NCBI GenBank assembly: GCA_902801485.1 | Contig: CADCIP010000024.1 | Coordinates: 1-46,566 of the forward strand | Source: an uncultured Bacteroidales bacterium | Lineage (GTDB): Bacteria > Bacteroidota > Bacteroidia > Bacteroidales > Bacteroidaceae | DNA: 46,566 bases | Reading direction: 5' to 3' | Shown: one piece after another, positions 22,160 through 37,464 of the stretch | Layout: every line of letters begins with the position of its first letter | Position numbering within the stretch: the stretch's first letter is position 1 | The notes under the pieces: model-generated | The model's input: only the letters and a program-made list of their open reading frames with translations | Told to the model about the DNA's origin: nothing | Database searches by the model: none | Program-made: the position numbers and the translations under genes

Positions 22160-24967
22160 TTACTTGGTTGGAGACTTCATACCAACTACAAGACGGTTGC
22201 CGCTCTTGAATATCTTCTGAGCCAGCTCCTTGAGGTCGGCTGTGGTGATGCTCTGAACCATCTCGTCGTAACCTGTTACATAGTCTTTCTTTAAGCGGGT
22301 AAGAGTAACCATCTGATTCATCCAGTATCCGTTCTTCTTCAGGTTCTCGGCATGAGAGCGAACCATATATTCCTTTATCTTCTGCAGATAATCCTCGGAA
22401 GGACCTTCGCTGCAAACCTTCTCTACACCATCGTAAACAACCTTCATCATGCGATCCATCTTGTCGGGCGCTGTGGGCAACTGAATCTGTACAACGGCAA
22501 TCTCCTCGGGGTAATCGGTAAGAGATGCACTGACGGGAACGCCATAAGCACCGCCTTCATCCTCACGAACGGTCTCTGTATAGAGCATAGACATTGCCTG
22601 TTCCAGCATATCGACCATAATATCGTTTCGCAAGTTCTCCTTTAAAGGTGCGTGATATACAAAGTTTACCGTTGCATTGGGGGTATCCTGCTCCTTATCG
22701 AAGATGCAGGTACGTTCACCCTTAGTAAGGCGACGGTCGATAACCTCGAACTTCTCAGCCTTCTTGCTTACAGGCAATGCGCCTAAGTACTTAGCCAACA
22801 TAGGAGCTACGGAGTCAGCATTCAGGTCGCCTACGAAATAGAAGTCGAAGTCGGCGGCATTGGCAAAACGCTCTTTGTAGATTTCCAGTACACGGTCGTA
22901 GGAAATCTTCTCGATATCCTCTGTACGCATACGCCTAGCACGGACATTGTTGTTATACAGAATGCTTGCGACACTATCGCGAAGAGCTGTCTGGGGATTC
23001 AGGTCCTGATTCTTCAGGGCATCCTGCAAACGGGCCATGGTACTCTGGAAAGCTTCATCATCGCGATGAGGAGCGGTAAAACAGAGATAGGTGAGTTGCA
23101 GAAGAGTTTCGAAATCCTTCTTCACACAGTTACCGTTCAGGCTCTCGACACGGTCGCCGACAGTGGGATCGACGGAAGCCTGAATACCAGAAAGCTTCTT
23201 GCTCAACTGGGTAGCAGTGAAGGTTCCCCAACCGCCCAAGCTTACCATCCCGGCATTACCGGAACAGAAATACTCATCGTTGGGATAAAGGCTATTACCA
23301 CCCCAGCTTACAGCTTTCATAGAAATCTGATTGGGTGCATAATCTGTCTGCTTTACGCGTACCTTTATGCCATTGCTGAGCGTAATCAGCTTAGAACCGA
23401 ACACATCATCCTTTATGCTCTTAACCTTTGTCTTTGAAGAAAGTTCAGGAACCAAAGGATCTGTATTCACCTCTTCCTTAAAGACCTCGATTTCCTCAGC
23501 ATCCACATCGGCCAGCGTTTTCAGGATTTCCTCCTTTGTAGGATACTGCAGGCCTTCCTTTTCAGGCATAAAGAGGGCAATCGCTCTGTTCTTGTCTGAA
23601 ATCAACTCGGTGAATGCCTGATTGACAGCCTCAATAGGCAGCAGAGGAATGATGGTCTTCATATTCTGATGCTTCCACTCAATACCGGGAGCAGGCTCGT
23701 TATCCAGGAAATAACGCACACACTCATTAACATAAGCAGTATTCTGCACCTTGTCACGAGCCTCGTACTGAGCATCCAGGCGCGACAGGTACTCCTGCTT
23801 GAAGCGCTCAAATTCAGCCTCGGTGAATCCACCGCGCTTAGCACGCAGCAACTCGCGGTAAACCGATGCTATGGCATTCAGATACTGTCCTTCCTTCATA
23901 ACAATCGTAGCATTCACACTCTCCTTGGACTTGGCCACCAGATACTCACCGAAATCTATGCCGGCATAAACAAATGGGCAATCGGGCTTCTGTGACAATT
24001 CCTCCAGACGCTCTTCAAACATGCCAGAGATAGCACCTTCCATAAACTGCAGGAAGAGGTAGGGCATCGTACTCTTGACTTCGCGAGGAGTAGCATCGTG
24101 CTTGAACATAAGAAGAGCGTAGGCAGCTGTCTGCTCCTTATCTTTCTGGATAGAAGCCAAAGGCTCTTCGTTATCGGGCACAGGGATAACCTCGCGCTTG
24201 GCAGCATCAGCGGCAGCGGGAGCGATGTCGGCAAACATATCCTTTATCTTCTGCTCAATCTCGTCGGGGTTAACATCGCCCACAATAACAAGCCCCTGAA
24301 GGTCGGGACGATACCAACGACGGTAGTAAGAACGCAAATCATCGTAAGGGAAGTTCATGACGATGTCCATGGTACCAATGGGCATACGGTCGGCATAGCG
24401 ACTGCCAACAAACAGATCCTTGAAGGCTGCCTCCTGCATACGCATCATGGCAGAACGGCGCATACGCCACTCTTCGTTGATAACGCCACGCTCCTTGTCT
24501 ATCTCCTTATCTTCGAGCAAAAGGTCGTGGCTCCAGTCGTGCAGAATCAGCAAGCAAGAGTCTATCGCACCAGCTGTCTCTACATTCACATTATTAATAT
24601 TATATACTGTCTCATCGAAAGAAGTGTAGGCATTCAGGTTCTCACCGAACTTAACACCTATGCGCTCCAGATACTGCTTCAAGGCATCACCGGGGAAGTG
24701 AGTTGTTCCGTTGAAACACATGTGCTCCAAGAAGTGAGCTAAACCGCGCTGGTTCTCTTCCTCCTGAATAGAGCCCACCTTCTGGGCAATATAGAAGTCG
24801 CAACGTTTCTCGGGCCACTCGTTATGGCGAATGTAATAAGTAAGACCGTTAGGCAAAACGCCAACCTTAACAGCTGGGTCAAGGGGTACATTAGGCATCT
24901 GCTGTGCATAAATGCCCATCACTGTTGCAAGCAAAGCAACGACGATAATAAGGAATCTCTTTTTCAT
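22160..24967 (-). CDS. Exported M16 family zinc metallopeptidase (pitrilysin-like)
   Basis: The protein has 935 residues. Signal peptide MKKRFLIIVVALLATVMGIYAQ. The inverted zinc motif HFLEH is at residues 78-82 (His78, Glu81, His82), followed by a Glu-rich helix (ERGVINEEW, about 157-165) that supplies the third ligand. Four M16 half-domains are expected at this length: an active N-terminal domain pair and a C-terminal pair whose last part has the usual peptide-binding region (DEGGAYGVPVSASLTD). It acts in the periplasm or outer membrane on oligopeptides. The outer membrane barrel gene follows at a 28-bp gap. Upstream there is no clear promoter, only the AACTCT repeats at 25005-25055. Confidence 0.9.
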   Translation of the reverse strand: MKKRFLIIVVALLATVMGIYAQQMPNVPLDPAVKVGVLPNGLTYYIRHNEWPEKRCDFYIAQKVGSIQEEENQRGLAHFLEHMCFNGTTHFPGDALKQYLERIGVKFGENLNAYTSFDETVYNINNVNVETAGAIDSCLLILHDWSHDLLLEDKEIDKERGVINEEWRMRRSAMMRMQEAAFKDLFVGSRYADRMPIGTMDIVMNFPYDDLRSYYRRWYRPDLQGLVIVGDVNPDEIEQKIKDMFADIAPAAADAAKREVIPVPDNEEPLASIQKDKEQTAAYALLMFKHDATPREVKSTMPYLFLQFMEGAISGMFEERLEELSQKPDCPFVYAGIDFGEYLVAKSKESVNATIVMKEGQYLNAIASVYRELLRAKRGGFTEAEFERFKQEYLSRLDAQYEARDKVQNTAYVNECVRYFLDNEPAPGIEWKHQNMKTIIPLLPIEAVNQAFTELISDKNRAIALFMPEKEGLQYPTKEEILKTLADVDAEEIEVFKEEVNTDPLVPELSSKTKVKSIKDDVFGSKLITLSNGIKVRVKQTDYAPNQISMKAVSWGGNSLYPNDEYFCSGNAGMVSLGGWGTFTATQLSKKLSGIQASVDPTVGDRVESLNGNCVKKDFETLLQLTYLCFTAPHRDDEAFQSTMARLQDALKNQDLNPQTALRDSVASILYNNNVRARRMRTEDIEKISYDRVLEIYKERFANAADFDFYFVGDLNADSVAPMLAKYLGALPVSKKAEKFEVIDRRLTKGERTCIFDKEQDTPNATVNFVYHAPLKENLRNDIMVDMLEQAMSMLYTETVREDEGGAYGVPVSASLTDYPEEIAVVQIQLPTAPDKMDRMMKVVYDGVEKVCSEGPSEDYLQKIKEYMVRSHAENLKKNGYWMNQMVTLTRLKKDYVTGYDEMVQSITTADLKELAQKIFKSGNRLVVGMKSPTK

Positions 24968-25004
24968 ATTATTAAAATTAAATGTCTCTCAATTTTTAAA
25001 CGGT

Positions 25005-25055
25005 TAGCGGTTAGCGAAAACTCTAAACTCTAAACTCTCAACTCTAAACTCTCAC
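25005..25055. repeat. AACTCTAA-type tandem repeats
   Basis: GGTTAGC is present twice, then AACTCTA-like units (AAACTCT AAACTCT AAACTCTC AACTCT AAACTCTC) run into the 3' end of the small lipoprotein gene. Same style as the strings at 25498 and 35462. Confidence 0.75.
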
Positions 25056-25438
25056 TCCCTCATCCTCCATTTACTGTTTTGGAATATCATTGGCAGGCCC
25101 ACCTGCTCATGAACACTGTCGGCAAAGACCATATCCAGAAAGACGTAGGCCGTAGAATCTGTTGTGTAAAGGCTGTCGGAAAGGGCTTCAACCCGCACTA
25201 CTCCACCCTTCCTGGCAAGTTCTTTCGCAGCCTGTGCAACAACACTTTGCATCTGTCGGCTGTAATCCTCGGAAAAAGATGGGGAATCTGCTATTCCCTC
25301 GACAAACTGCTTAGCATCACCTTGTATAAAAAACGTATAGTAACGCTGAGCAGCCTGTTGTGCCGACTCGTGCGAGAAGGTATCTGAGTCAGTCTTTGTG
25401 CAAGCAAAGAAGAGGAAAGGGAGAAGAAGAAGTACCAT
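25052..25438 (-). CDS. Small lipoprotein, NTF2-like (DUF4878-like)
   Basis: The start at 25438 gives MVLLLLPFLFFAC with the lipobox FFAC (Cys13), then a mature part of about 115 residues. A start 20 codons upstream (25498) is possible, but its coding bases (RHSPQRGAG) lie in the GC-rich palindromic repeat at 25438-25467, so it is less likely. The mature part begins ESAQQAAQRYYTFFIQGDAKQFVEGI, a phrase typical of DUF4878/NTF2-like lipoproteins, and ends with the FQNSKWRMRE strand. It is probably a periplasmic or outer membrane accessory protein. It follows der after a gap filled by two repeat copies. Confidence 0.7.
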   Translation of the reverse strand: MVLLLLPFLFFACTKTDSDTFSHESAQQAAQRYYTFFIQGDAKQFVEGIADSPSFSEDYSRQMQSVVAQAAKELARKGGVVRVEALSDSLYTTDSTAYVFLDMVFADSVHEQVGLPMIFQNSKWRMRE

Positions 25439-25467
25439 CCCTGCCCCCCTTTGGGGGGAGTGCCTTA
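25438..25467 (-). repeat. GC-rich palindromic repeat, copy C
   Basis: On the minus strand: CACTCCCCCCAAAGGGGGGC followed by AGGG. It resembles copy B (25498-25550) and lies in inverted orientation to it, about 50 bp apart. It overlaps the upstream part of the lipoprotein reading frame. Confidence 0.65.
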
Positions 25468-25497
25468 ATGATTGATTATATATTTGGAGCCTATCCA

Positions 25498-25550
25498 CTT
25501 TAAACTTCTTAAACTGTCCCTCACTCCCCCAAGGGGGAGACGGAGGGGGC
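25498..25550 (+). repeat. Composite repeat, copy B
   Basis: TTTAAACTTCTTAAACTGTC is followed by CCTCACTCCCCCAAGGGGGA and GACGGAGGGGG. It matches copy A at 35461-35515 in both halves (AT-rich string, then palindrome). It lies 2 bp after the der stop codon. Confidence 0.7.
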
Positions 25551-25552
25551 TT

Positions 25553-26863
25553 TTACTTTTGTCTCACAAACACATTAATAGGCGTACCGTTAAAGTTCCA
25601 GCGCTCGCGGATCTTATTCTCGAGGAAACGCCGATAAGGTTCCTTTACGTACTGGGGCAAGTTGGCATAGAACACAAAAGTCGGAACATGTGTCTCCGGA
25701 ACCTGCATGCAGTATTTTATCTTTATGTACTTACCCTTCATGGATGGTGGCGGATAGGCCTCAATCAGGGGAAGCATCTCTTCGTTCAACTTAGCTGTGG
25801 AAACACGACGGCAACGGTTCTGGTAAACATCCTTTGCTGTTTCCAGCACCTTAAAGATACGCTGCTTGGTAAGTGCAGAGGCAAAGATAATAGGGAAATC
25901 AACAAAGGGAGCCATACGGTCGCGAATAGCATCTTCCATTGTTTTCATCACCTTTGTTTCCTTATCAGGTACCAAGTCCCATTTATTCACCACAACCACC
26001 AGATTCTTCTGGTTCTTCTGTATTATCTGAAAGATATTCAGGTCCTGGCTCTCTATACCGCGTGTTGCATCTATCATGAGGATGCAAACATCGCTGTTCT
26101 CTATGGCACGGATGGAGCGCATAACACTATAGAACTCCAAGTCCTCTGTTACCTTATTCTTTCTGCGGATTCCGGCTGTATCAACCAGATAGAAGTCGAA
26201 TCCGAACTTATCGTATCGGGTGTAAATGCTGTCGCGAGTGGTTCCCGCTATATCAGTCACAATATTACGGTCCTCACCAATAAAGGCGTTTATGAGTGAA
26301 CTCTTGCCTGCATTGGGACGACCGACAACAGCAAAGCGAGGGATATTCTCATCGGGCAGTTCGTTACCTTCCTTGGGGAAAAGACTGACTACAAGGTCGA
26401 GCAAATCACCCGTTCCACCTCCAGTAGCAGCAGAGATGCACTGAGGATCGCCTAAGCCCAAAGAATAAAATTCGGCTGAGAGATAAGTCTCGTTATTATC
26501 GGTCTTGTTGCACACCAACACAACAGGCTTCTTGGTCCGACGAAGAATACCGGCTACGGCCTCATCCAAGTCTGTCACACCATTATGAATATCAACAAGG
26601 AAGAGAATCACGTCAGCTTCGTCCGTGGCAAGCGTTACCTGCTTGCGGATTTCTTCCTCAAAAATGTCGTCGCTGTTCACGACCCATCCGCCTGTATCTA
26701 TGACAGAAAACTCTCTTTGTCCCCATTCACACTTGCCGTACTGGCGGTCACGCGTGGTACCGGCCTCATCACTCACAATAGCGTGACGGGTTTGTGTAAG
26801 TCGGTTGAAAAGGGTACTCTTTCCCACATTGGGACGTCCCACTATAGCTACAATATTGCTCAT
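25553..26863 (-). CDS. der: Ribosome-associated GTPase Der (EngA)
   Basis: The protein has 436 residues from the ATG at 26863 ([12 protein letters not shown]). The in-frame extension to 26911 is rejected because the promoter TAATTTTG lies inside it, at 26881-26888. There are two GTPase domains in tandem. The first has P-loop GRPNVGKST and a DTGGW switch II; the second has [14 protein letters not shown] and NKWD. A C-terminal KH-like domain ends [12 protein letters not shown]. This double-GTPase layout is unique to Der, which works in 50S subunit assembly. It has its own promoter here and is separated from era by the 7-kb signalling operon. Confidence 0.97.
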
Positions 26864-26880
26864 AACTTCTAATTTGGCTG

Positions 26881-26912
26881 CAAAATTACGACTAAGTGAG
26901 TGATTTTCCAAA
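26881..26912 (-). promoter_or_regulatory. Promoter of der
   Basis: On the minus strand TTTG (26909-26912), 20 bp, TAATTTTG (26881-26888), 17 bp before the start codon. It makes der an independent unit. Confidence 0.7.
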
Positions 26913-27063
26913 TATATTTGAGAAAATCCGAACGTAAGTAATTTAGAAACGTAGTTTCAAAGTTACGAATAAGCATTAGATAAACGAAATAAAATAACTT
27001 TTTTATTTCCTTATCCAAGCAGAAGTATGTTTAAAATCTAAATAGAGAATCTCCGTAACAACG

Positions 27064-27186
27064 TCACGCCATAACCTTCATGACAAACAGCAATGGATTT
27101 CCCCCAAAGGAACCGGCAGATAACGGTTTTTGTCCATACACGCAACCACAGAGGAAAACTGCTAAGATTCCAACGCCAACAATATA
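27064..27186 (-). other. Possible tiny lipopeptide frame lacking a standard start
   Basis: After the hydrolase stop codon a minus-strand frame reads (CTG)KKLKYIVGVGILAVFLCGC, a good lipoprotein signal with lipobox LCGC, then about 25 residues (VYGQKPLSAGSFGGNPLLF) to a TGA. The codon in the start position is CTG, not ATG, GTG or TTG. An ATG start exists only far upstream, inside the hydrolase gene (27282). It may be a decayed gene, a non-standard start or chance. Confidence 0.3.
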
Positions 27187-27202
27187 TTTCAGTTTCTTCA
27201 GT

Positions 27203-27793
27203 TTAAATTCTGTCGTCAGATCCAAAAACCTGATTAACAAGGCATTCGAACTCCTTATAAGCGAAAGTATCGCGAAGTTCACTTAACGATGCGGCTAACC
27301 CACGATAATGCCACTCGTGATCCTTGCGCGACTTGGAATGGAAACGGGTCCAAAGGGAATCTCCCAAAACGGCATAGTCGCGGGCGATGGCTCGCATGTT
27401 TGAGAGTTTATCACCCAGCGCTACGATTTTGGCTTCTCGGGAAGCTGCAGCGATGCGGTCGATGGCTGCCTGCTTACGGGCACGCCAATCTTCTACACTA
27501 TCATGGCCCTGATGGGGCTCGTCACTCTCTATGTCGACAAATGATGCTACGCGTTCACCAAATTCTGCACATATCTGCTCCAACGTGACATCAGTATCCT
27601 CTACTGTGTCGTGAAGGATGGCTGCGGCCAAGAGCTCCTGATCGGAGGACATCGTAGCCACAATCACTACAGCTTCCATAGGGTGAACAATATAAGGGAA
27701 TCCCTTACTACGTCGCTCGGTCCCGGCATGAGCACGAACCGCAAATACAATAGCACGGTCTAACAATGAGGTGTTCAACGGATTATTTGCCAT
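27203..27793 (-). CDS. HD-domain small alarmone hydrolase (SpoT/MESH1-like)
   Basis: The protein has 196 residues. The hydrolase signature of RelA/SpoT proteins is present in order: His22 (VRAHAGT), RRSKGFPYIVHPME with His37, LHDTVEDT with His61-Asp62 and Glu65-Asp66, and a later ALGDKLSNMRA with Asp128. These match the Mn-dependent (p)ppGpp 3'-pyrophosphohydrolase fold; no synthetase or regulatory domain is attached, so it is a single-domain SAH. Its first 11 bases overlap the end of the synthetase gene (27783-27793), which suggests translational coupling and a joint set point for (p)ppGpp. It is the last gene of the six-gene operon. It could act on other nucleotides, as MESH1-type enzymes can. 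Confidence 0.88.
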   Translation of the reverse strand: MANNPLNTSLLDRAIVFAVRAHAGTERRSKGFPYIVHPMEAVVIVATMSSDQELLAAAILHDTVEDTDVTLEQICAEFGERVASFVDIESDEPHQGHDSVEDWRARKQAAIDRIAAASREAKIVALGDKLSNMRAIARDYAVLGDSLWTRFHSKSRKDHEWHYRGLAASLSELRDTFAYKEFECLVNQVFGSDDRI

Positions 27794-28871
27794 CGTTTGA
27801 TTCTTTATTCATATGCATAAAAGACAATGTCCTTGCCTGCTCGAACATGAGGTCGGCCAGCATACCGTTGGCATCGGACTCGCCATTAATGTTATCGTAA
27901 ATTAACTTCAGCCCTTTGCGTCCTCCTCCACACTTGAGCACATGTACCATACTGAGATACAGAAGGGCTGCACTGGAGGATAAAATATCCAAGTCGGTGA
28001 GCGCCAAGTGTGAAAGTGCCAGTTGGTAGGCATCGTCGCTATTATTGTCAATAAAATTCTGCACATCACCGAGAGACTTTAATCCGAAGGATTCTAACAG
28101 CGACAGAAAGGGCATCAGTGAGGCATGGTAGATTTCAGCTTGGTTGACAGCAGCAATACGACGATTCAGGCGATCAAAGGGATGCAATTCGAGATAGTTG
28201 CGGAATGTATCGGCAGACAGGGGTACTTCGTCGAGACGCCCATTCTTCACCAGAGACTGTACCTGGCGACGATAGTCGGTGAGTACAATGCGCAGTCGGC
28301 TGAACTCGTCATCGATAAGTTCGAGCATACCCGCCAAGCGGTTAAACTGCCGTATAAACTCGTCGGGAATTTTTACATCGTTCTTATAGCCAGTATCATG
28401 CTCGATGGTGGACCACACATGCTGGAGTGCCGTACGCATTTGCAGTTCGAAGCGAGGACCACCCGTCTTGAGCCGACAAATGTAGTGAAGCGAGTTATAG
28501 CCGAAAGAATCCAATTGGTGCAGTTTGCGCTTATCTACGCTCTCTTGCCAGTCGATATCGAATACACGTTTCGCAATGGCTGCAACCTTGTCCACCTCAT
28601 CTGTGTAGAAAGTAATGACACGCAGGCCTACAAGGTCGGTGACATCCTCGATACTCTTGTACTTCGCACCTTTCAGTTCCAACTTTCCAATCAGTGAGTT
28701 CTCGGACTTAATACGGTATTCGATGGCCGTAACATAAATATCCTTCTCTTCAAGAGCTTGGCGTAACTGTTTGTTAGCTTCTTGGGCTAACTGCTTCAAA
28801 GTGGGGAGTAGTTCGCGATACTGTTGTATCAGCGACTCGCCATGCAGATCCAGTGTCAATGGGCTCACCAT
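27783..28871 (-). CDS. RelA/SpoT-type small alarmone synthetase with extra C-terminal domain
   Basis: The protein has 362 residues. The synthetase core (about 20-210) has the family residues: YRIKSENSLIGKL (52-64), DLVGLRVI (79-86), GYNSLHYI (124-131), ELQMRTALQHVW (142-153) and IEHD (156-159). These correspond to the GTP-binding and pyrophosphate-transfer elements of RelA and RelQ/RelP enzymes, so activity is expected. About 150 residues follow that are not TGS/ACT: helical, beginning HPFDRLNRRI and including LALTDLDILSSSAALLYLS. This domain is unknown to me and could receive the partner-switch signal. The gene lies 12 bp after the STAS gene and overlaps the hydrolase gene by 11 bp. A toxSAS-type toxin is the alternative reading. 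Confidence 0.88.
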   Translation of the reverse strand: MVSPLTLDLHGESLIQQYRELLPTLKQLAQEANKQLRQALEEKDIYVTAIEYRIKSENSLIGKLELKGAKYKSIEDVTDLVGLRVITFYTDEVDKVAAIAKRVFDIDWQESVDKRKLHQLDSFGYNSLHYICRLKTGGPRFELQMRTALQHVWSTIEHDTGYKNDVKIPDEFIRQFNRLAGMLELIDDEFSRLRIVLTDYRRQVQSLVKNGRLDEVPLSADTFRNYLELHPFDRLNRRIAAVNQAEIYHASLMPFLSLLESFGLKSLGDVQNFIDNNSDDAYQLALSHLALTDLDILSSSAALLYLSMVHVLKCGGGRKGLKLIYDNINGESDANGMLADLMFEQARTLSFMHMNKESNDGK

Positions 28872-28883
28872 AGCTTCTGCTAT

Positions 28884-29186
28884 TTATTTGAACTCGAAGA
28901 GGTTGACAAACCCCGTCATGGCAAAGACTGCACGAATGCTATCAGAAATGCCTTTGATATAGACGTGGTCACCCTTGGGCTTAGCACTCTTCAAGATGCT
29001 TAGAAAAATACGCAACCCTGCAGATGAGATATAATCCATCTTCGAACAGTCGAGGATGATGTCATGACCAGAACTTTCCTTCAAGGGTGCAACAGCCTTC
29101 TCGACCTCAAGAGCCGAAGCGGTATCGAGACGACCTTCGAAATACATCACTAAATCGTTGTTTTCTTCTTTTAAAACAGTATTCAT
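28884..29186 (-). CDS. STAS-domain anti-anti-sigma-factor-like protein
   Basis: The protein has 100 residues, a complete stand-alone STAS domain. The phospho-acceptor loop reads MDYISSAGLRIFL, with Ser54/Ser55 in the position of the regulated serine of SpoIIAA/RsbV. The ends VYIKGISDSIRAVF and FVNLFEF fit the last helix. In known partner switches such a protein is phosphorylated by an RsbW-type kinase and dephosphorylated by a SpoIIE/PP2C phosphatase; both domains are present in one protein two genes upstream. No sigma factor or separate anti-sigma kinase is in the window, so the downstream target is open. It lies between the transporter and the alarmone synthetase (gaps 9 and 12 bp). Confidence 0.92.
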   Translation of the reverse strand: MNTVLKEENNDLVMYFEGRLDTASALEVEKAVAPLKESSGHDIILDCSKMDYISSAGLRIFLSILKSAKPKGDHVYIKGISDSIRAVFAMTGFVNLFEFK

Positions 29187-29195
29187 AAATGTGTA

Positions 29196-30995
29196 TTAAT
29201 ATAGTGGGTAAATAATGTTTATAATAAATAAGGTTATGATAAGCAATACGATATGCACACAGATACCCAGACGGGCAAAGTCGGTAAACCGGAAAGAACC
29301 GGGACCATAGATGAGCATGTGCGTACTGCTACCTACAGGTGAGGCAAAGCTGAAGGTTACACAGAGCATGAGCGACATGACGAATGGCATAGGGTTGCAA
29401 CCCAGCATTTCAGCCTGTTGATACATAATGGGGAAGAAAATAGCACTGGCTCCCACATCGCTGACGAACTCGCTGACGAACGAAGCCAAAATGCACATAA
29501 CACACATGACAATATAGGGATTATTTCCACAGAGCAGGAGGATGTCGCTTGCAATGCTATCAGCAATACCCGTCTTGGTAATGGCTGCGGAGAAAACAAC
29601 CGTGACACCCAAAACGAGGAGTAAATCCCATTCTATGTATTTGGTGACGCCAGTCATACGACAACAACCAAAAATCAGCATTAATCCTGCTGTCAGCATA
29701 GTAGTTGCCATGAGTGGCATAAAGTGGAAAATTGAAATTACGAACATCATCAGAAAGATAATTGCCGAAGTAATTGTCTTTGAACCCAATTGTGGTACAA
29801 AATGGCTGTCGAAGAAAGTGAGTGAACGACGGTTGTCGCGTTCGAACTGTTCTTCACCCTTGGGTGGGCACTCCAGAAGCAGCGTATCACCAGCTTCTAT
29901 GAGTATTTCACGAGGCTGCCCTTTTACACGATGTCCTTGACGAGCCACAGCGATAAGAGCGACATTATTCTTTTCTTCAAAATCACAATTTGCCATAGAC
30001 TGTCCTATAAGGTCGCTGCCAAAAGTAACATAGGCCGTACGCATGCGACGTTTGGTGTCTATATCATTGATACTCCACACGTGGTGGTCAGCTGCCGCCA
30101 AACCATGGGTTCGCTTCAATTCCAGAATCTCGTTAATCTGTCCAGCATAAATAAGACGGTCACCTCCAAGAATCCACTCGTCTTTGGGAACAGGCATGAT
30201 AATCTCTCGGTCGAAATGAACAATTTCTACTAAAGAACCACCCTTAACGTTGTACAGACCTGCGTCATAAACAGTCTCGCCAACAGCAGGATTGTCGGTG
30301 GGCACAAGTAATTCCACTGTGTAATCGCTTGTCGTTTCGAACGACTGTTCTGCAGATTCACGAGAGGGGATAAAGCGTTGCAGTAAGATAACCATAAGAA
30401 CACCGACAACTGTAAGGATAAAACCAGGTATCAGGGGCTCGAATACGTTAAGCGAATGACCGGTTTTATTCATATAGAGACCCGCAATAACAAGGCTTGA
30501 CGAATTACCCAGCAACGTACACATTCCGCCAAGTGTAGCAGCATAACTAAGTGGCAACAACAACTTAGAGGGGGCTATATTGAGTTTGCGTGACCAAATC
30601 TTCACAACATCAATGAACATAGCAACCACATTCATGGAATTCAACAGGGCAGCCATTATACTTGTAGGCACCATCAGACGAAGCAAGGCATTATTGTAAT
30701 TCTTAGGATCACCGAGCACATTCTTTGACAGCCAATAAAGCACGCCAGTATGCAGGAGTCCGGCAATAATTACAAAGTACGCAGCATGTATTACAACCGG
30801 TTCACTTCCAAAACCAGCCATTCCTTCCTCCTCGGTAACGACTCCTGTAACCAGTAATATGGTAAGGGCACCCAGGAAGACGACCTCAACAGGAACCCGA
30901 CTAGACCGGGCCATCACGACAAAGATGCCTATGAGAGTAAAGATTGTAATCCAGGCATGAATATTAAATCCAAAAACGATTTGATCAAATATCAT
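29196..30995 (-). CDS. SLC13-family permease with two RCK_C (TrkA_C) domains
   Basis: The protein has 599 residues. N-terminal membrane half (about 1-210) with a hairpin motif (LLNSMNVVAMF) and GNSSSLVIAG. Two cytosolic RCK_C domains follow (about 225-300, YTVELLVPTDNPAVGE; about 310-395, RMRTAYVTFGSDLIGQS). The second membrane half (about 415-599) has the matching VSDVGASAIFF and ASPVGSSTHMLIYGPG. This inverted-repeat layout is that of DASS/CitT-type anion:Na+ symporters with ligand-sensing loops. The substrate could be a dicarboxylate or sulfate. Regulation by the neighbouring STAS protein is plausible, as STAS domains regulate SLC26 anion carriers, but that is inference. Gaps are 3 bp to the phosphatase gene and 9 bp to the STAS gene. 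Confidence 0.88.
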   Translation of the reverse strand: MIFDQIVFGFNIHAWITIFTLIGIFVVMARSSRVPVEVVFLGALTILLVTGVVTEEEGMAGFGSEPVVIHAAYFVIIAGLLHTGVLYWLSKNVLGDPKNYNNALLRLMVPTSIMAALLNSMNVVAMFIDVVKIWSRKLNIAPSKLLLPLSYAATLGGMCTLLGNSSSLVIAGLYMNKTGHSLNVFEPLIPGFILTVVGVLMVILLQRFIPSRESAEQSFETTSDYTVELLVPTDNPAVGETVYDAGLYNVKGGSLVEIVHFDREIIMPVPKDEWILGGDRLIYAGQINEILELKRTHGLAAADHHVWSINDIDTKRRMRTAYVTFGSDLIGQSMANCDFEEKNNVALIAVARQGHRVKGQPREILIEAGDTLLLECPPKGEEQFERDNRRSLTFFDSHFVPQLGSKTITSAIIFLMMFVISIFHFMPLMATTMLTAGLMLIFGCCRMTGVTKYIEWDLLLVLGVTVVFSAAITKTGIADSIASDILLLCGNNPYIVMCVMCILASFVSEFVSDVGASAIFFPIMYQQAEMLGCNPMPFVMSLMLCVTFSFASPVGSSTHMLIYGPGSFRFTDFARLGICVHIVLLIITLFIINIIYPLY

Positions 30996-30998
30996 ACG

Positions 30999-33344
30999 CT
31001 ATATTTTTTTTAAGAGTGTGAGGACATTTCGTCCATCAATATATTCGTAGTTTATACTATCCATAATCTGCCGGATAAGGTGAATACCAAGTCCACCTAT
31101 ATTACGTTCCTCAGCAGAAAGTGTTGTGTCAACCTCTGCTTTGGCTGTAGGATCGAAGGGAGTACCATTGTCGTTAATGACAAATTTCAACCCCTTACTA
31201 CTGATAGTTGCATCAATATTCACCATACCCTTAACACCCTTGGGGTATGCATAGTTCATTACATTAACAACAGCCTCTTCAATAGCAAGGTTCAATTGCA
31301 TGCACATGTCCATATCGAAGCCTGCAGCCTCGCAAACGGTTTCAATGAACTCGGACAATTGCGGAATTGTCTGCACATCGTTAGGCAGGGTCAGACTGCG
31401 CTGATAGAGAACATCGGGATGCTGGTGTTTAAATTGCAAGGCCAGCATGGTCAGGTCGTCACTCTGTTCTGCATCACCAACAAACTGATGCACAGCCTGG
31501 GTCATAGCCTCTATGATTTGCAGGGGGACGTTTGGCGCTTGTTTTATTACATTAAGAATCCTTTGTTCTTGGAACTGATCATGATTTTTGTTTTCCGCCT
31601 CGGTCAATCCGTCTGTATAAAGGAATATTGTAGTAAAAGGGTCAATTGTTGTTTCTTGTGGTGTATATACCCAATCTTGCATGACGCCAACAGGAACATT
31701 TGAATCACAGGGTAACAATCCAACCCCGCTACCGATTAATATCGGCGCATCATGCCCCGCATTGCAATAGCGCATACGGCCCGTAAGCATGTCCAACACA
31801 CCGACAAAAAGCGTAACGAACATGTTCGATTCGTTGTTTGTTGCCATCGTGTTGTTAATATTGTTGACAATGTGGTCAGGCAAGGCTTCATGAGCAGCTA
31901 CAGAGCGGAACAGAGTACGGGTAACAGCCATTACTAAAGAAGCAGGAACGCCTTTGCCGGACACATCGCCAATGCAGAAAAACAGTTTTTCGTCGCGTAT
32001 GAAGAAATCAAACAAGTCGCCACCAACCTCTTTGGCAGAAACAAGTTTCCCGAAGATATCAATATCGTCTCGTTCAGGATACGGTGGATAAACTTTGGGA
32101 AGCATAGCCATTTGTATGTCGCTTGCAATACGAAGGTCACTCTCTATTGAAGCCTTTTCTGCTGTAGTTTCCTTCAGTTCTCCAATATATTTAACGAGTG
32201 AATGCTGCATGTCAGAGAACGAGTGGCTAAGTTGGCCTATCTCATCGATACGCTGCAACTCGGGCAGCTTGGTATCGAACTGTCCCGAGGCAATCGTCTC
32301 AGCCTCCTTGGCGAGCCGATGGAGAGGTTTCAGTTCGCTAGTGATGATACGGATGAAGAAAACAAGCATGAGCAGAAGTCCTAGCAGAACTATCGCTCTT
32401 ACACTATTTCGTAAGCGGTCAAAACCACCAAAAATATCACTCTCAGGACAGACTATAGCCATGCTGCAGCCCGTTTTGCCGAGAGGCTTATAGAACACAT
32501 AGCAGTTCTGTCCATCCATTTCCATTTGCTTCACGCCTTCCTCGCCTCGCTGCATGGCATGACCCAGAGAGGTAATAGCTGTGTCCGGACGTTCAATGGT
32601 CTGAGTGAAAATGGTCTGACGGGTAATTTTTGTGGTATCGGGGTGTACAATAAAAGTGCCGCCACGACCAATCATGATGCTATAGGAATTGGGATAAGGT
32701 TTCACGGCGGAGACTGTCTGTGAAAGTCGGTTGAGTGACAGACTCGTATTGATAACGCCTATCATTTTACCTTGCTCGTTCTTTATCCCCTGACAGTAGC
32801 TGGTCACCATTTCGCTTGTATTTGTAGCTGCGTCTATATCCACGTAGGGTTCCGTCCAGCACGGGTGGTCAAGCAACATGGGCATAAGATACCAATCTGT
32901 ATAGAAATACTGATAAAGGTCACTACCACCTTGTATCGTGCGGATGGTATCGTTAACAATCTTTGAGTAAGCCGAGAAATAGAGACCTTTATCCTTAAAA
33001 TAATAAGGCTCAAAGGCGATGGAACAGTTATAGAAATCGGGATTGTTCAATAGCATGCCACGGCTATATACAAACATGGAGTCTGCCACATCGGGATGCC
33101 GTTGAACAAGCCATTCTGTCATGTTCGTAGCAACCTCCACGCGATTCATGATACCCTCAATATGCAGTGAAGTCTTGTCCAATGTTTGCATGGCACGATT
33201 GATAGCCTCTTGTCGAACTGCCTCACGAGCCTGATAGAACAAGAATCCAAGGGCGACATTGAAGATGATGGCAGCGAAAAAAACTACCCACAAGCTAACT
33301 CTGACGGAGAGTTTTCTACGGATATAATTAAGGATTTCTTTCAT
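30999..33344 (-). CDS. Cache-HAMP-SpoIIE phosphatase fused to an RsbW-like kinase domain
   Basis: The protein has about 781 residues from the ATG at 33344 (MKEILNYIRRKL); an ATG at 33359 would add MAYFI. (Residue numbers below count from 33344.) A transmembrane helix at about 18-38 (WVVFFAAIIFNVALGF) precedes a periplasmic dCache-type sensor (about 40-315) and a second helix (VLLGLLLMLVFFIRI). HAMP lies at about 340-395 (ELKPLHRLAKEAETIASGQF). The PP2C/SpoIIE domain (about 415-640) has GGDLFDFF, IGDVSGKGVPA, YCNAGHDAP and DDLTMLAL, the metal-binding Asp residues. The last 125 residues are a GHKL/HATPase domain of RsbW type (NLAIEEAVVNVMNYAYP, INDNGTPFDP, GGLGIHLIRQIMD). One protein could thus both phosphorylate and dephosphorylate the STAS partner. 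It lies 3 bp before the permease gene and 39 bp after the binding-protein gene. Confidence 0.93.
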   Translation of the reverse strand: MKEILNYIRRKLSVRVSLWVVFFAAIIFNVALGFLFYQAREAVRQEAINRAMQTLDKTSLHIEGIMNRVEVATNMTEWLVQRHPDVADSMFVYSRGMLLNNPDFYNCSIAFEPYYFKDKGLYFSAYSKIVNDTIRTIQGGSDLYQYFYTDWYLMPMLLDHPCWTEPYVDIDAATNTSEMVTSYCQGIKNEQGKMIGVINTSLSLNRLSQTVSAVKPYPNSYSIMIGRGGTFIVHPDTTKITRQTIFTQTIERPDTAITSLGHAMQRGEEGVKQMEMDGQNCYVFYKPLGKTGCSMAIVCPESDIFGGFDRLRNSVRAIVLLGLLLMLVFFIRIITSELKPLHRLAKEAETIASGQFDTKLPELQRIDEIGQLSHSFSDMQHSLVKYIGELKETTAEKASIESDLRIASDIQMAMLPKVYPPYPERDDIDIFGKLVSAKEVGGDLFDFFIRDEKLFFCIGDVSGKGVPASLVMAVTRTLFRSVAAHEALPDHIVNNINNTMATNNESNMFVTLFVGVLDMLTGRMRYCNAGHDAPILIGSGVGLLPCDSNVPVGVMQDWVYTPQETTIDPFTTIFLYTDGLTEAENKNHDQFQEQRILNVIKQAPNVPLQIIEAMTQAVHQFVGDAEQSDDLTMLALQFKHQHPDVLYQRSLTLPNDVQTIPQLSEFIETVCEAAGFDMDMCMQLNLAIEEAVVNVMNYAYPKGVKGMVNIDATISSKGLKFVINDNGTPFDPTAKAEVDTTLSAEERNIGGLGIHLIRQIMDSINYEYIDGRNVLTLLKKI

Positions 33345-33383
33345 GATAAAATAAGCCAATGCATAATAGTAGTGGAATACTTC

Positions 33384-34412
33384 CTACTTTTCACATATAA
33401 GTTCTTCATACTTTACTTCGCGACTCAACATATTGTTTTCCTTCATCAGACGACTGGCCAGATGCACCATGTCCGGACGCAGACGGTACTCTCGTTTTTT
33501 TGACTCACGGTCCACAAGTAGGCGCAACACTTCCTTGAGCATCAGCTGTTGCATCACACGGTTTGTGGCAATATGGTCCTTATTGACGTACTGCATAACG
33601 ATGTCCAAAGCCTCTTCAGGGTGACGAACTGCCCATTCCCAACCCTTCTGGCTGGCCTTAGCAAACTTCTTCGCCTGTTCGGGATGTCGCTCATAATATT
33701 CCCGAGTCATATAAACACCGTCTTCCTGTACATTATAGCCGTGGTCGCAGAAACGATAGACATTTTTATCCGTTATTTCGATACCCGCTTGGATTAGCTG
33801 GTTGTACTCATTGTAACTCATAACCAGAGTTGCATCAAGGGCACCAGCAACAAAAAGATTAACATCTTGAGCGAAGCGCACCCACTGATAGTTCAGGTGA
33901 TCCTTGATGCTCATACAGATAGCTAAATGACCAAAGCCCGCACTCCAGATGCCGACTTTGGCACCTTTTTGCGTTAAGGGGTCTTTGCCGCGGGCTGAGA
34001 CAATGACCATCGCATTGTTCATCGATGTCTGCAAAATGTTCACCAACGATATGCCTTTGTCCAAATTCTCCAAAGCTTGACAAACCTGCATTGTCGTTGC
34101 CTGACAATCGCCAGAGAGTAGTCGGTTGATGGCTGGCTGCGTAGTCGTCGGATGTTCTATGTGCACATTTAGCCCTGCCTCTCGATAGAAACCTTTATAT
34201 TCTGCCACGTAATAGCCGACAAACTGCGCCTGAGCAGTCCACTGAGGAGTAAAGACAATAGTCTCTTCCTTTGCTGTCGTTGCAAATACCATATTACCAC
34301 AGAAAACAAACATGGTAAAGAAGGCAGCAATTAATAGAGAGCGACATAAATTTACAGACCTACCCGAGGACAAATAAACGCGTCTGGATATCAATATCCG
34401 TTCCTTAATCAT
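33384..34412 (-). CDS. NMT1/THI5-like periplasmic binding protein, orphan
   Basis: The protein has 342 residues. A long basic N-region is followed by a hydrophobic core (LLIAAFFTMFVFCGNMVFA) and ATTA-K as a likely cleavage site near residue 46. The mature part opens with VFTPQWTAQAQFVGYYVAEYKGFYREAGL, the hallmark of NMT1/THI5-type (ABC transporter SsuA/ThiY-like) binding proteins, and has GDCQATTMQV and GIWSAGFGHLAIC in expected places. No ABC permease or ATPase gene is next to it. Instead it heads the operon with the Cache/SpoIIE protein, so it may present a ligand to that sensor. Ligand class (pyrimidine, sulfonate, other) cannot be told. A promoter lies at 34445-34476. Confidence 0.85.
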   Translation of the reverse strand: MIKERILISRRVYLSSGRSVNLCRSLLIAAFFTMFVFCGNMVFATTAKEETIVFTPQWTAQAQFVGYYVAEYKGFYREAGLNVHIEHPTTTQPAINRLLSGDCQATTMQVCQALENLDKGISLVNILQTSMNNAMVIVSARGKDPLTQKGAKVGIWSAGFGHLAICMSIKDHLNYQWVRFAQDVNLFVAGALDATLVMSYNEYNQLIQAGIEITDKNVYRFCDHGYNVQEDGVYMTREYYERHPEQAKKFAKASQKGWEWAVRHPEEALDIVMQYVNKDHIATNRVMQQLMLKEVLRLLVDRESKKREYRLRPDMVHLASRLMKENNMLSREVKYEELICEK

Positions 34413-34444
34413 TTTCTTTATTGGTATTTTGTTACTTCACGCTG

Positions 34445-34476
34445 CAAAGATACGGATAAGCAAACAAAAAAACAAA
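34445..34476 (-). promoter_or_regulatory. Promoter of the six-gene signalling operon
   Basis: On the minus strand TTTG (34473-34476), 20 bp, TATCTTTG (34445-34452), followed by a leader of about 27 bases to the start at 34412. Together with the era terminator it separates this operon from era. Confidence 0.7.
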
Positions 34477-34495
34477 CGAATTTAAGTATTTTCGA

Positions 34496-34527
34496 AAGGG
34501 GATGTGCCGTTTTTGGCACATCCCCTT
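34496..34527 (-). terminator. Terminator after era
   Basis: A perfect 13-bp stem (AAGGGGATGTGCC with GGCACATCCCCTT) and a six-base loop, 23 bp after the era stop. The T run on the minus strand is interrupted (TCGAAAATACTT). Confidence 0.8.
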
Positions 34528-34549
34528 GTATTCTGTTTGAGTGTTACAC

Positions 34550-35431
34550 TTACTCCAACTGATAACCGTATGACTTCATAGCGCGCTCACTCTGACGCCA
34601 ATCCTTATCTATTTTAACAAACACCTCCAAGTAAATACTCTTGCCGAAGAACTTCTCCAGGCTTTTGCGTGCTTCAGTACTAACACGTTTCAAGGCTACA
34701 CCCTGATGACCTATGATAATACCCTTCTGACTGTCACGCTCAACATAAATAACGGCATTGATATGGATATTATTATCTGTCTCCTTGAACTGCTCCACCA
34801 CGACTTCTACACTGTAAGGGATTTCCTTATCATAATAGAGCAGGATCTTCTCGCGAATAATCTCGGTCACAAAGAAACGGGCAGGCTTATCTGTCCACTG
34901 ATCCTTATCAAAGTATGCTGGACTTTCTGGCAGAAGCTCCTGAATGCGCTTAAGTACTACATCTACATTGAATTTATGCAAGGCACTGATGGGGATAATC
35001 TCTGCCTTGGGCAGGACAGCATGCCACTCCTCCACCTTCTGGGTGAGAACCTTCTGGTCCGAGATATCTATCTTGTTAATAAGTACCAGAACGGGCACCG
35101 TCATGCGCTGAACCTTCTCCAAGAACCCGGCATTCTTGTCAGGTGTCTCCACCATATCCGTTACATAGAGCAGGACATCGGCATCCTGAAGGGCGCTCTC
35201 AGAGAATTGCAGCATCTGCTCTTGCAACTTGTAGTTGGGTTTCAAAACGCCTGGAGTATCAGAAAAACAGATCTGCATCTCAGGTGTATTAAGGATTCCC
35301 ATAATACGGTGGCGAGTAGTTTGAGCCTTGAACGTAGCAATACTAATGCGCTCACCCACCAGAAGATTCATGAGCGTGCTCTTACCTACATTGGGATTAC
35401 CTACTATGTTTACAAATCCTGCTTTATGCAT
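34550..35431 (-). CDS. era: GTPase Era
   Basis: The protein has 293 residues, the normal length for Era. The GTPase domain has P-loop GNPNVGKST, switch motif SDTPGVL and NKID. The C-terminal KH domain (GHQGVALKRVSTEARKSLE, FGKSIYLEVFV) binds the 3' end of 16S rRNA during 30S maturation. It has its own promoter (TAACTTTG at 35451-35458). It follows fabH by 94 bp, a gap containing composite repeat copy A, and ends at a perfect terminator. Confidence 0.97.
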   Translation of the reverse strand: MHKAGFVNIVGNPNVGKSTLMNLLVGERISIATFKAQTTRHRIMGILNTPEMQICFSDTPGVLKPNYKLQEQMLQFSESALQDADVLLYVTDMVETPDKNAGFLEKVQRMTVPVLVLINKIDISDQKVLTQKVEEWHAVLPKAEIIPISALHKFNVDVVLKRIQELLPESPAYFDKDQWTDKPARFFVTEIIREKILLYYDKEIPYSVEVVVEQFKETDNNIHINAVIYVERDSQKGIIIGHQGVALKRVSTEARKSLEKFFGKSIYLEVFVKIDKDWRQSERAMKSYGYQLE

Positions 35432-35450
35432 GTTATTTTTAATGAAGAAT

Positions 35451-35481
35451 CAAAGTTACCTTTAAACTCTAAACTGTCAAC
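35451..35481 (-). promoter_or_regulatory. Promoter of era
   Basis: On the minus strand GTTG (35478-35481), 19 bp, TAACTTTG (35451-35458). The -33 element lies inside the AT-rich half of repeat copy A, so the repeat contributes part of the promoter. Confidence 0.5.
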
Positions 35482-35515
35482 TCCTCCCTCCCATTTGGGG
35501 GAGGGCCGGGGAGAG
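35461..35515 (+). repeat. Composite repeat, copy A
   Basis: TTTAAACTCTAAACTGTC is followed by CTCCTCCCTCCCATTTGGGG and GAGGGCCGGGGAGAG. It is a palindromic GC-rich core with the same AT-rich lead-in as copy B at 25498-25550. It sits between fabH and era. Confidence 0.7.
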
Positions 35516-35525
35516 AGGCCATCAA

Positions 35526-36605
35526 CTATTTTCTCTTAGCGTACCACTCTTCGCGGGTAATCTCGCCTTCTTTATAGAACTCAGCGGGTTCTTTAGCAGC
35601 TTCTGCAGCACCGTCGTACCCCCAAATCATATAGCTGGCTCCCCAGGTGAAACCAGCGCCAAAAGCTGTGAACACCAATTTATCGCCTTTCTTCAGTCGT
35701 GGTTCATACTCCCAAAGACATAGGGGAAGAGTTCCTCCAGAGGTATTGGCCATGTGATCAATATTGACCATTACATGGTCTTCGTCAACACCTATACGCT
35801 TAGCCACAGAAACCTCTATATTTATATTTGCCTGATGAGGAATAACCCAAGCAATATTGTCTTTATTCAGGCCGTTTCGTTCTGTAAGTGTCTTAACAGC
35901 ACTGCTCATATCCAAAACAGCATGCTTGTAAACGGCCCGACCTTCCTGATACACAAAATGCTCACGAGCATCAACAGTCTCGTGACTTGGCATCTTGGCA
36001 GAACCGCCAGCTGCCATGTGAAGATTCTGATATCCTTTTCCGTCAACTCTATAATATCCGTCCATCAAGCCGAGTTTCTCTGTTGTTGCTTCCATCATTA
36101 CACAAGCTGCACCGTCACCAAAAATAGGACATGTATTGCGATCCTCATAGTTAGTCATACTACTCATGTGGTCACCACCACAGATTATGATGCGTTTGTA
36201 ACGTCCGCTGCGAATATATGAGGCGCCGGCCTCCATGGCATAAAGGAATCCTGCACACGCAGCTTCCATATCGTATCCAAACGCATTTTTTAAACCACAG
36301 TCGCCTATAACTAATGAGGCCGTAGAGGGAAAATGATAGTCGGGAGTCGTGGTCGCACAGATAACCAACTCTATACTATCCGGATTAGCGCCTGTCTTAC
36401 GCAGAAGTTGCTGAACAGCACGAGTCATCATATATGATGTACCACTTCCCTGCTCAGGTTTAAGAATATGGCGTGTCTTCACTCCTATTCGCTCCATAAT
36501 CCACTCATCAGAAGTCTCAACTATGGTTGACATCTCCTCGTTATCCAGAATATAGTCCGGTACATATCCTCCGACACCGGTTATTACGGCATTAATTTCT
36601 TCCAT
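35526..36605 (-). CDS. fabH: Beta-ketoacyl-ACP synthase III
   Basis: The protein has 359 residues. Catalytic Cys117 lies in AACAGF, the His in IPHQANINI and the Asn in NTSGGTLPL, giving the Cys-His-Asn triad of FabH. The GDGAACVM and FGAGFTWGA loops are typical of the thiolase fold. It condenses acetyl-CoA (or branched acyl-CoA) with malonyl-ACP to start fatty acid synthesis. The C-terminal about 25 residues (EEWYAKRK) extend slightly beyond the E. coli enzyme length of 317, as is usual in Bacteroidales. It follows rpmF in the classical yceD-rpmF-fabH order, although a hairpin after rpmF may reduce read-through. Confidence 0.96.
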   Translation of the reverse strand: MEEINAVITGVGGYVPDYILDNEEMSTIVETSDEWIMERIGVKTRHILKPEQGSGTSYMMTRAVQQLLRKTGANPDSIELVICATTTPDYHFPSTASLVIGDCGLKNAFGYDMEAACAGFLYAMEAGASYIRSGRYKRIIICGGDHMSSMTNYEDRNTCPIFGDGAACVMMEATTEKLGLMDGYYRVDGKGYQNLHMAAGGSAKMPSHETVDAREHFVYQEGRAVYKHAVLDMSSAVKTLTERNGLNKDNIAWVIPHQANINIEVSVAKRIGVDEDHVMVNIDHMANTSGGTLPLCLWEYEPRLKKGDKLVFTAFGAGFTWGASYMIWGYDGAAEAAKEPAEFYKEGEITREEWYAKRK

Positions 36606-36629
36606 TATCCTTTAACGTAATTTACAATA

Positions 36630-36676
36630 AAAATAAAGCCGCATGAGCCCAAAATATAAGGGCTATTGCGGCTTAT
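36630..36676 (-). terminator. Terminator or attenuator after rpmF
   Basis: On the minus strand AAGCCGCAATAGCCC pairs with GGGCTCATGCGGCTT (one small mismatch area), followed by TATTTTTATT. It sits between rpmF and fabH, so it may end or attenuate the yceD-rpmF message. Confidence 0.75.
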
Positions 36677-36693
36677 TTCTTTACCTTAGAAGA

Positions 36694-36873
36694 TTATGCT
36701 TCTTTCTCGATAGCAACCTTGCCGCGGTAATATCCGCATGCAGGGCATACTGTGTGATAAATGTGGAACTCACCGCAGTTAGGGCATACTGCCAATGCAG
36801 GAGCTACAGCCTTATCATGAGTTCTTCTCTTGAGGGTCCTAGTCTTGGACTGTCTTCTTTTAGGATGTGCCAT
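36694..36873 (-). CDS. rpmF: 50S ribosomal protein L32
   Basis: The protein is 59 residues: MAHPKRRQSKTRTLKRRTHD, then the zinc-ribbon pairs CPNCGEFH and CPACGYYRG, ending KVAIEKEA. This is a full-length L32 of Bacteroidales type. The four Cys (30, 33, 43, 46) identify the zinc-binding paralogue. It starts 6 bp after the yceD stop and is certainly co-transcribed with it. Confidence 0.96.
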   Translation of the reverse strand: MAHPKRRQSKTRTLKRRTHDKAVAPALAVCPNCGEFHIYHTVCPACGYYRGKVAIEKEA

Positions 36874-36879
36874 TTTGTT

Positions 36880-37401: not shown

Positions 37402-37408
37402 CGGGCTG

Positions 37409-37416
37409 CAAAATTA
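37409..37416 (-). promoter_or_regulatory. -7 box for yceD-rpmF
   Basis: TAATTTTG on the minus strand; CTTG 21 bp upstream (37438-37441) is a weak -33 match. The site is very close to the start codon (short leader). Confidence 0.5.
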
Positions 37417-37464
37417 CAAAAAAAACAAATAACGACGCAAGAATTTGCTCTAAAATTTGGTCTA

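What the first reader, a model, noticed from the sequence alone, without database searches (positions are those of the whole stretch)
27203..34412. Six-gene operon joining a binding protein, a SpoIIE/RsbW/STAS partner switch, an anion permease and a (p)ppGpp synthetase-hydrolase pair
Seen: one promoter-led, tightly packed minus-strand operon (gaps 39, 3, 9, 12 and -11 bp) encodes an NMT1-like binding protein, a dCache-HAMP-SpoIIE protein with a C-terminal RsbW-type domain, an SLC13 permease with RCK_C domains, a STAS protein, a RelA/SpoT-type synthetase and an HD hydrolase. Known: partner switches usually end in a sigma or anti-sigma factor, and SAS/SAH enzymes are usually separate. Inference: a periplasmic ligand sets the phosphorylation of STAS, which controls the permease or the alarmone synthetase. 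That would be a direct link from nutrient sensing to the stringent response. I know of no described system with this gene set.
Basis: partly seen in the sequence, partly recalled or inferred. Interest (0 to 1): 0.85.

Follow-up and report, generated by a model that had tools for sequence, protein, structure and literature searches.

The report
Partner switch wired to alarmone synthetase
Prevotella-type gut bacteria carry a compact gene set that joins an outside-sensing protein switch to enzymes that make and destroy the starvation alarm signal (p)ppGpp, which suggests that an external cue may set the starvation response directly; the link between switch and enzyme is inferred from genome comparison and has not been tested.

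Summary
In detail: six minus-strand genes at 27203-34412, gaps 39, 3, 9, 12 and -11 bp, with the stated domains. It is not local. All six families share a cassette in 10 of 139 genomes of the genus. STAS lies within 900 bp upstream of the synthetase (SAS), same strand, in 46 of 80 SAS loci. Of 8 loci from five other families, 5 keep phosphatase, kinase, STAS, SAS and hydrolase together. Xylanibacter brevis ATCC 19188 has five of the six as one tight run. SAS and hydrolase (SAH) behave as one plug-in: of 29 NMT1 cassettes SAH is in 17 of 17 with SAS and 0 of 12 without; the permease is independent (10 of 17, 9 of 12). Best reading: a partner switch whose output is a (p)ppGpp synthetase, working like SiaABCD, whose output is a diguanylate cyclase. 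Against: a STAS 87% identical to the window's stands beside the permease with no SAS, 33 of 92 SAS stand alone, and folding STAS with SAS gave no confident docking. New variant of a known kind; mechanism inferred.

The parts
34445..34476 (-). Bacteroides-type promoter-like site (TTTG-N20-TATCTTTG), first element of the operon
   Evidence: weak statistically (4 in window, 1.54 expected by chance)
34496..34527 (.). 14-pair hairpin, likely end of the upstream era-like transcript
   Evidence: listed on the + strand; the hairpin is symmetrical; such sites are not above chance in number
33384..34412 (-). NMT1/THI5-like binding protein (342 aa), no ABC permease or ATPase gene next to it in the operon
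   Evidence: nearest solved chain 3ix1, an N-formyl-aminopyrimidine binding protein, 1.4e-10
30999..33344 (-). Cache-HAMP-PP2C(SpoIIE)-RsbW-type kinase fusion (781 aa): sensor, phosphatase and kinase of the switch
   Evidence: PP2C and kinase part match Rv1364c 3ke6 (2.3e-14), kinase part RsbW 6m36 (1.4e-6), sensor part chemoreceptor and histidine-kinase sensor chains
29196..30995 (-). SLC13/CitMHS-type anion permease with two TrkA_C (RCK_C) stretches (599 aa)
28884..29186 (-). Single-domain STAS protein (100 aa); Ser55 aligns with the Ser of DSTGL in RsbV
   Evidence: 4hyl 6.8e-12; RsbV 6m36 1.7e-8
27783..28871 (-). Small alarmone synthetase (362 aa): RelQ-like catalytic domain (about 1-208) plus a conserved all-helical C-terminal domain (about 200-355)
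27203..27793 (-). Small alarmone hydrolase (196 aa), HD domain with HDTVED motif, overlaps the synthetase gene by 11 bp
   Evidence: 7qoc 1.1e-20; MESH1 5vxa 1.4e-13

Best explanation
A membrane-bound partner switch whose output is a (p)ppGpp synthetase. A ligand, probably delivered by the NMT1 binding protein, acts on the Cache sensor. This shifts the balance between the PP2C phosphatase and the RsbW-type kinase, which are one protein here. They set the phosphorylation of STAS at Ser55. Unphosphorylated STAS binds the synthetase, most likely through the extra helical C-terminal domain, and releases a brake on it, so alarmone rises; the hydrolase encoded in the same operon clears the product and resets the state. 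The SLC13 permease is an optional second output or a supplier of the nutrient. Shown: gene identity, conserved residues, conserved linkage, co-inheritance of synthetase and hydrolase. Inferred: ligand role, phosphorylation, STAS-synthetase contact, direction of control, enzyme product.
For: All parts of a partner switch are present. STAS lies at most 900 bp upstream of SAS, same strand, in 46 of 80 loci (47 under the rule, which also takes L102), with -4 to 57 bp between the matches in 45 of the 46. Largest neighbour families in the 80 SAS loci: SpoIIE 37 loci, STAS 37, SAH 36, NMT1 34, SLC13 14, next family 13. Of 8 loci from five other families (all the other strong hits), 5 have PP2C, RsbW, STAS, SAS and SAH together, 1 more has all five on one strand with the switch downstream, 2 near-identical ones have only SAS-SAH; NMT1 and SLC13 were not found there by tblastn, so the core is switch plus SAS-SAH. 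In 29 NMT1 cassettes of the genus SAH is in 17 of 17 with SAS and 0 of 12 without, Fisher 1.9e-8 (relatedness and contig ends not corrected). All 30 SAS-bearing genomes carry a STAS match against 66 of 109 others, Fisher 3.3e-6 (same caveat). SAS linkage needs 12 changes on the STAS tree, so it was gained or lost repeatedly. Catalytic-site columns are invariant in 13 SAS. Precedents: phosphorylation of SiaC prevents its activation of SiaD; a helical C-terminal domain brakes Treponema SAS.
Against: A STAS 87% identical to the window's stands in a cassette with SLC13 and no SAS (G449, L110), so such a STAS works without SAS. 33 of 92 SAS examined have no STAS within 800 bp and no phosphatase or kinase within 6 kb on their strand; 7 of 31 SAS loci in the genus stand alone (one on a 6.4-kb contig). 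L032 and L068 have the SpoIIE gene before SAS but no STAS between them. The predicted STAS-SAS chain had pTM 0.68, about what I would estimate for two domains without fixed contact, so no docking support. No transcript or biochemical data.
Confidence: 0.58

Rival explanations
1. STAS controls the SLC13 permease (for example through its RCK_C domains), and SAS-SAH only rides along as a co-expressed nutrient-response pair.
For: NMT1-SpoIIE-STAS cassettes without SAS exist with SLC13 directly before or after STAS (L110, L111, L113, L131, L132); SLC13 lies in 9 of 12 NMT1 cassettes without SAS. The window STAS groups with that branch.
Against: SLC13 is missing from 7 of 17 NMT1 cassettes that have SAS, was not found near any of 8 SAS loci of other families, and lies in 14 of 80 SAS loci against 37 for STAS. 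SAS follows STAS within 57 bp in 45 of the 46 linked loci.
Confidence: 0.2
2. The switch controls both outputs: uptake through the permease and alarmone synthesis, as one decision to import or to slow growth.
For: All six families in one cassette in 10 of 139 genus genomes; 26 of 29 NMT1 cassettes have at least one of the two outputs (counted from the table).
Against: Presence of SLC13 and of SAS shows no association (p 0.45), so there is no sign that they need each other.
Confidence: 0.12
3. SAS-SAH is a toxin-antitoxin pair (toxSAS with a hydrolase antitoxin, as FaRel-ATfaRel), possibly defensive, and the partner switch gates the toxin.
For: SAS-SAH adjacency is known there (PMC11782079, passages); the SAS catalytic part matches PADLOC candidate PDC-S33 (2e-14) and, weakly, 7ztb (7.9e-4; I recall 7ztb as CapRel).
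Against: Best sequence and structure matches are the (p)ppGpp synthetases RelQ/RelP. 7 of 31 SAS loci in the genus have no SAH within 9 kb and 6 of 30 SAS genomes have none detected (assemblies are incomplete). I did not scan the neighbouring genes against the defence library.
Confidence: 0.1

Closest known systems
SiaABCD of Pseudomonas aeruginosa (and BgrSTUWV-BgrR, HsbA-HsbD)
   Same: Phosphatase, kinase and STAS-like protein control a nucleotide second-messenger synthetase (PMC8457831, passages). The NCBIfam SiaA model matches the SpoIIE protein far below its cut-off (87.9 against 700 bits).
   Different: Output there is a diguanylate cyclase; SiaC is DUF1987, SiaB a separate kinase; here a PF01740 STAS, a fused RsbW domain, a RelA_SpoT synthetase and a hydrolase.
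SigB-type partner switch RsbU-RsbV-RsbW
   Same: PP2C phosphatase, GHKL kinase and STAS protein by homology.
   Different: No sigma factor gene in the six-gene cassette.
Rv1364c-type fused phosphatase-kinase
   Same: PP2C and RsbW-type kinase in one chain (3ke6).
   Different: Membrane Cache-HAMP sensor here; STAS is a separate protein.
Tde-SAS (DsRel) and Tde-SAH of Treponema denticola
   Same: SAS with a C-terminal domain of about 180 aa that brakes synthesis, and a SAH in the same genome (PMC10434055, abstract and passages).
   Different: TPR domain there, no Pfam hit for the domain here; the word STAS does not occur in that paper's main text.
FaRel-ATfaRel toxSAS module
   Same: SAS and SAH genes adjacent (PMC11782079, passages).
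   Different: Toxin-antitoxin there; here 7 of 31 SAS loci in the genus have no SAH near, and a partner switch is a frequent neighbour.

Membership tests
Partner-switching system (general) | PP2C/SpoIIE phosphatase with metal-site motifs | tested here: met
   Pfam SpoIIE 1.9e-47; GGD, GDVSGKG, YTDGL and DDLT align with 3ke6; that these hold the metal is recalled
Partner-switching system (general) | GHKL kinase of RsbW type | tested here: met
   HATPase_c_2 7.9e-24; RsbW 6m36 1.4e-6; activity not tested
Partner-switching system (general) | STAS protein with phosphorylatable Ser | tested here: met
   Ser55 of ISSAG aligns with Ser of DSTGL in RsbV; that this Ser is the phosphosite is recalled
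Partner-switching system (general) | STAS phosphorylation switches a partner | not testable with these tools
   needs biochemistry
SigB/SigF-type partner switch | Sigma factor as target encoded with the switch | tested here: not met
   No sigma family among the six genes (Pfam); the flanking era-like and der-like genes were named by eye
Small alarmone synthetase (RelA_SpoT synthetase domain) | Synthetase domain with conserved catalytic columns | tested here: met
   RelA_SpoT 6.2e-19; R53, K55, K63, D79, E142, R146, H158, K163 invariant in 13; SAS1 fold (5ded); which columns are catalytic is recalled
Small alarmone synthetase (RelA_SpoT synthetase domain) | Makes (p)ppGpp | not testable with these tools
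   no assay
RelP/RelQ subfamily | Short protein of about 200-260 aa without extra domain (size recalled; solved chains of 201-255 aa) | tested here: not met
   362 aa with a folded helical domain after residue 200; NCBIfam YjbM model 56.8 bits, cut-off 320
DsRel (Tde-SAS) | C-terminal TPR domain | tested here: inconclusive
   No Pfam hit for the C-terminal domain up to E 5; helical model; no confident fold match
Small alarmone hydrolase | HD domain with HD..ED motif | tested here: met
   HD_4 1e-17; HDTVED aligned with HDTLED of 7qoc
toxSAS toxin-antitoxin | Toxic SAS with a neutralising partner | tested here: inconclusive
   SAH near 24 of 31 SAS loci in the genus; 6 of 30 SAS genomes with none detected; toxicity not tested
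SiaABCD | GGDEF output and DUF1987 SiaC | tested here: not met
   The synthetase is RelA_SpoT and the switch protein PF01740 STAS

The most novel reading that the evidence does not exclude
The first partner switch whose direct target is a (p)ppGpp synthetase: phosphorylation of a STAS protein, set by an outside ligand, turns a dedicated alarmone synthetase-hydrolase pair on or off, so part of the stringent response in Prevotella-type bacteria is run by an extracellular cue and not by ribosome starvation.
Probability: 0.5. Interest if true: 0.85.

Novelty: new variant of a known kind. Interest (0 to 1): 0.72.

Why it matters
Known inputs to (p)ppGpp are mostly intracellular (recalled). A sensor-phosphatase-kinase-STAS chain ending in an alarmone synthetase would give a direct signalling route from an outside ligand to the stringent response, add (p)ppGpp to the outputs of partner switches beside sigma factors and c-di-GMP, and give a reason why this genome keeps a third synthetase beside two long RelA/SpoT frames. 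The 2011 RSH survey lists only Rel and RshB for 8 Bacteroidia genomes (PMC3153485, passages). A cultured strain, Xylanibacter brevis ATCC 19188, carries five of the six genes as one tight run, so it can be tested.

Tried and rejected

'SLC13 and SAS are alternative outputs': seemed likely from the loci that I had picked, but shows no association in the genus census (10 of 17 against 9 of 12, p 0.45). Rejected.

'SAS-linked STAS form their own clade': not so; 12 changes on a poorly resolved tree of 100 STAS rows, 96 different.

Faster change of the C-terminal domain in stand-alone SAS: at matched catalytic-domain distance it is slightly more diverged in all five bins (for example 0.190 against 0.152), but pairs are not independent and the difference is small; not used as support.

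Rfam gave nothing above the gathering scores at 24000-38000. The phylum search found the SAS profile in 3 of 395 genomes at E 1e-40, own included; in the two others tblastn found no switch genes within about 7.5 kb.

Full report
Observation. The six ORFs, their strand and the gaps are exactly as reported. Pfam confirms the domains. The operon lies between an era-like GTPase gene (34550-35431) and a der-like GTPase gene (25553-26911), both on the same strand (the names are mine from the sequences). A hairpin and a Bacteroides-type promoter-like site separate it from the era-like gene; neither kind of site is clearly above chance in number. No Rfam family reached its gathering score there.

Parts. 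The SpoIIE protein is sensor (Cache-HAMP), PP2C phosphatase and RsbW-type kinase in one chain. The STAS protein has a Ser at the RsbV position. The synthetase has a RelQ-like catalytic domain and a second domain of about 150 residues, present in all 13 members aligned first, that folds with confidence as helices and has no Pfam hit and no confident PDB match. The hydrolase keeps the HDTVED motif. The binding protein is nearest to a formyl-aminopyrimidine binder, the permease to SLC13 structures. The own genome has two further RelA_SpoT genes in long frames (779 and 753 aa).

Spread. With the synthetase as query, 30 of 139 genomes of the genus have it at E <= 1e-30; 23 of 393 genomes of the order at E <= 1e-5, of which 9 are strong (over 300 bits, own included); and 3 of 395 of the phylum at 1e-40, own included. 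Their titles name Prevotella, Prevotellaceae, Bacteroidaceae, Bacteroidales or Xylanibacter, one only 'bacterium UBA3734'; many are rumen samples. In X. brevis SAH, NMT1, SpoIIE, STAS and SAS run as one block with overlaps of 4 and 4 and gaps of 13 and 11 bp (mechanical starts, SpoIIE from a GTG).

Neighbours. In the 80 loci the largest neighbour families are SpoIIE (37 loci), STAS (37), SAH (36), NMT1 (34) and SLC13 (14); the next has 13, a cytidylate-kinase-like protein. By tblastn STAS lies upstream on the same strand within 900 bp in 46 of 80; some loci are cut short by contig ends. The 8 other strong hits come from five other families (three from one, two near-identical from another): 5 have phosphatase, kinase and STAS together with SAS and SAH, 1 has the switch downstream on the same strand, 2 have SAS-SAH only. 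None of these 8 shows NMT1 or SLC13 by tblastn with the window proteins.

Census in the genus. The same 139 genomes were searched with each of the six proteins. SAS is in 30 genomes, SAH in 25, shared 24. STAS matches are in 96 genomes, including all 30 with SAS and 66 of 109 without. Of 29 NMT1 cassettes, 17 have SAS, and SAH goes with SAS exactly (17 of 17, 0 of 12), while SLC13 does not (10 of 17, 9 of 12). The tests do not correct for relatedness, incomplete assemblies or contig ends. All six families are in one cassette in 10 of 139 genomes (for four families; STAS and SpoIIE read); in one of these (G519) SLC13 is matched over residues 4-304 only. The exact window order recurs in G442, G452 and G505 (coordinates) and in L039. 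Of 31 SAS loci in the genus, 24 have a switch within about 6 kb and 7 do not, one of them on a 6.4-kb contig. The two sets overlap: at least three contigs of the 80 loci have the same lengths as contigs of genus genomes (L067 and G035:C28, L069 and G026:C45, L073 and G005:C50), so they are not independent.

The switch is a general device. SpoIIE matches are in 99 of 139 genomes. Other SpoIIE cassettes stand beside SLC13 alone (several), or, in single cases examined by Pfam, a PS-decarboxylase-like gene, an NRPS gene, or a HlyD-type gene (that one without STAS). So SAS-SAH looks like one of several outputs plugged into a common switch. On the STAS tree the SAS label needs 12 changes, SLC13 13; on the SAS tree STAS adjacency needs 20 and SAH 17. 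Repeated joining supports a working link but also shows that neither part depends on the other.

Mechanism. By analogy with SiaABCD, where unphosphorylated SiaC binds and activates the cyclase SiaD (PMC8457831, passages), and with Tde-SAS, whose C-terminal domain brakes synthesis (PMC10434055, abstract and passages), I propose that unphosphorylated STAS releases the C-terminal brake of SAS. The kinase is tethered to the membrane sensor, which makes sequestration of SAS by the kinase less likely than direct action of STAS (inference). The direct structural test was inconclusive.

Literature. The listings (open-access PMC only) showed no report of a partner switch with an alarmone synthetase. 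Of PMC6994654, on ppGpp in Porphyromonas, I saw only passages, which deal with the two enzymes Rel and RshB.

Verdict.

Noticed in passing
L011:72-1493 (other family of the order); L007:2625-3461; L112:10464-11303: An APH-type phosphotransferase is fused to the hydrolase (HD_4-APH, L011, Pfam) or sits between SAS and SAH (L112 by Pfam, L007 by eye); a family that looks alike by eye has 10 genes in 7 of the 80 loci. A small-molecule kinase may be part of the system.
   Followed up: partly
L129 (own genome C13), L143, L144: SpoIIE-STAS followed by a gene of about 450 codons and a very long one; in L129 the long one is an NRPS (Pfam) and the other weakly resembles alginate export below its cut-off: perhaps another output of the same kind of switch.
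   Followed up: partly
L121:10271-11551: A phosphatidylserine-decarboxylase-like gene just upstream of SpoIIE-STAS; gene pairs of similar size stand there in several other loci.
   Followed up: partly
L140 (own genome C38): NMT1-SpoIIE without the RsbW part and without a STAS found, followed by HlyD-type and TolC-like genes, preceded by an ABC exporter (TolC by eye).
   Followed up: partly
L032, L068: Cassettes in which the SpoIIE gene is followed directly by SAS with STAS missing (in L032 the RsbW part too).
   Followed up: no
window 26881-26912: A second promoter-like TTTG-N-TANNTTTG site on the minus strand, at the start of the der-like gene.
   Followed up: no
L163, L164: Two genomes of another order of the class have a distant SAS (about 33% identical) with no switch genes found within about 7.5 kb.
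   Followed up: no
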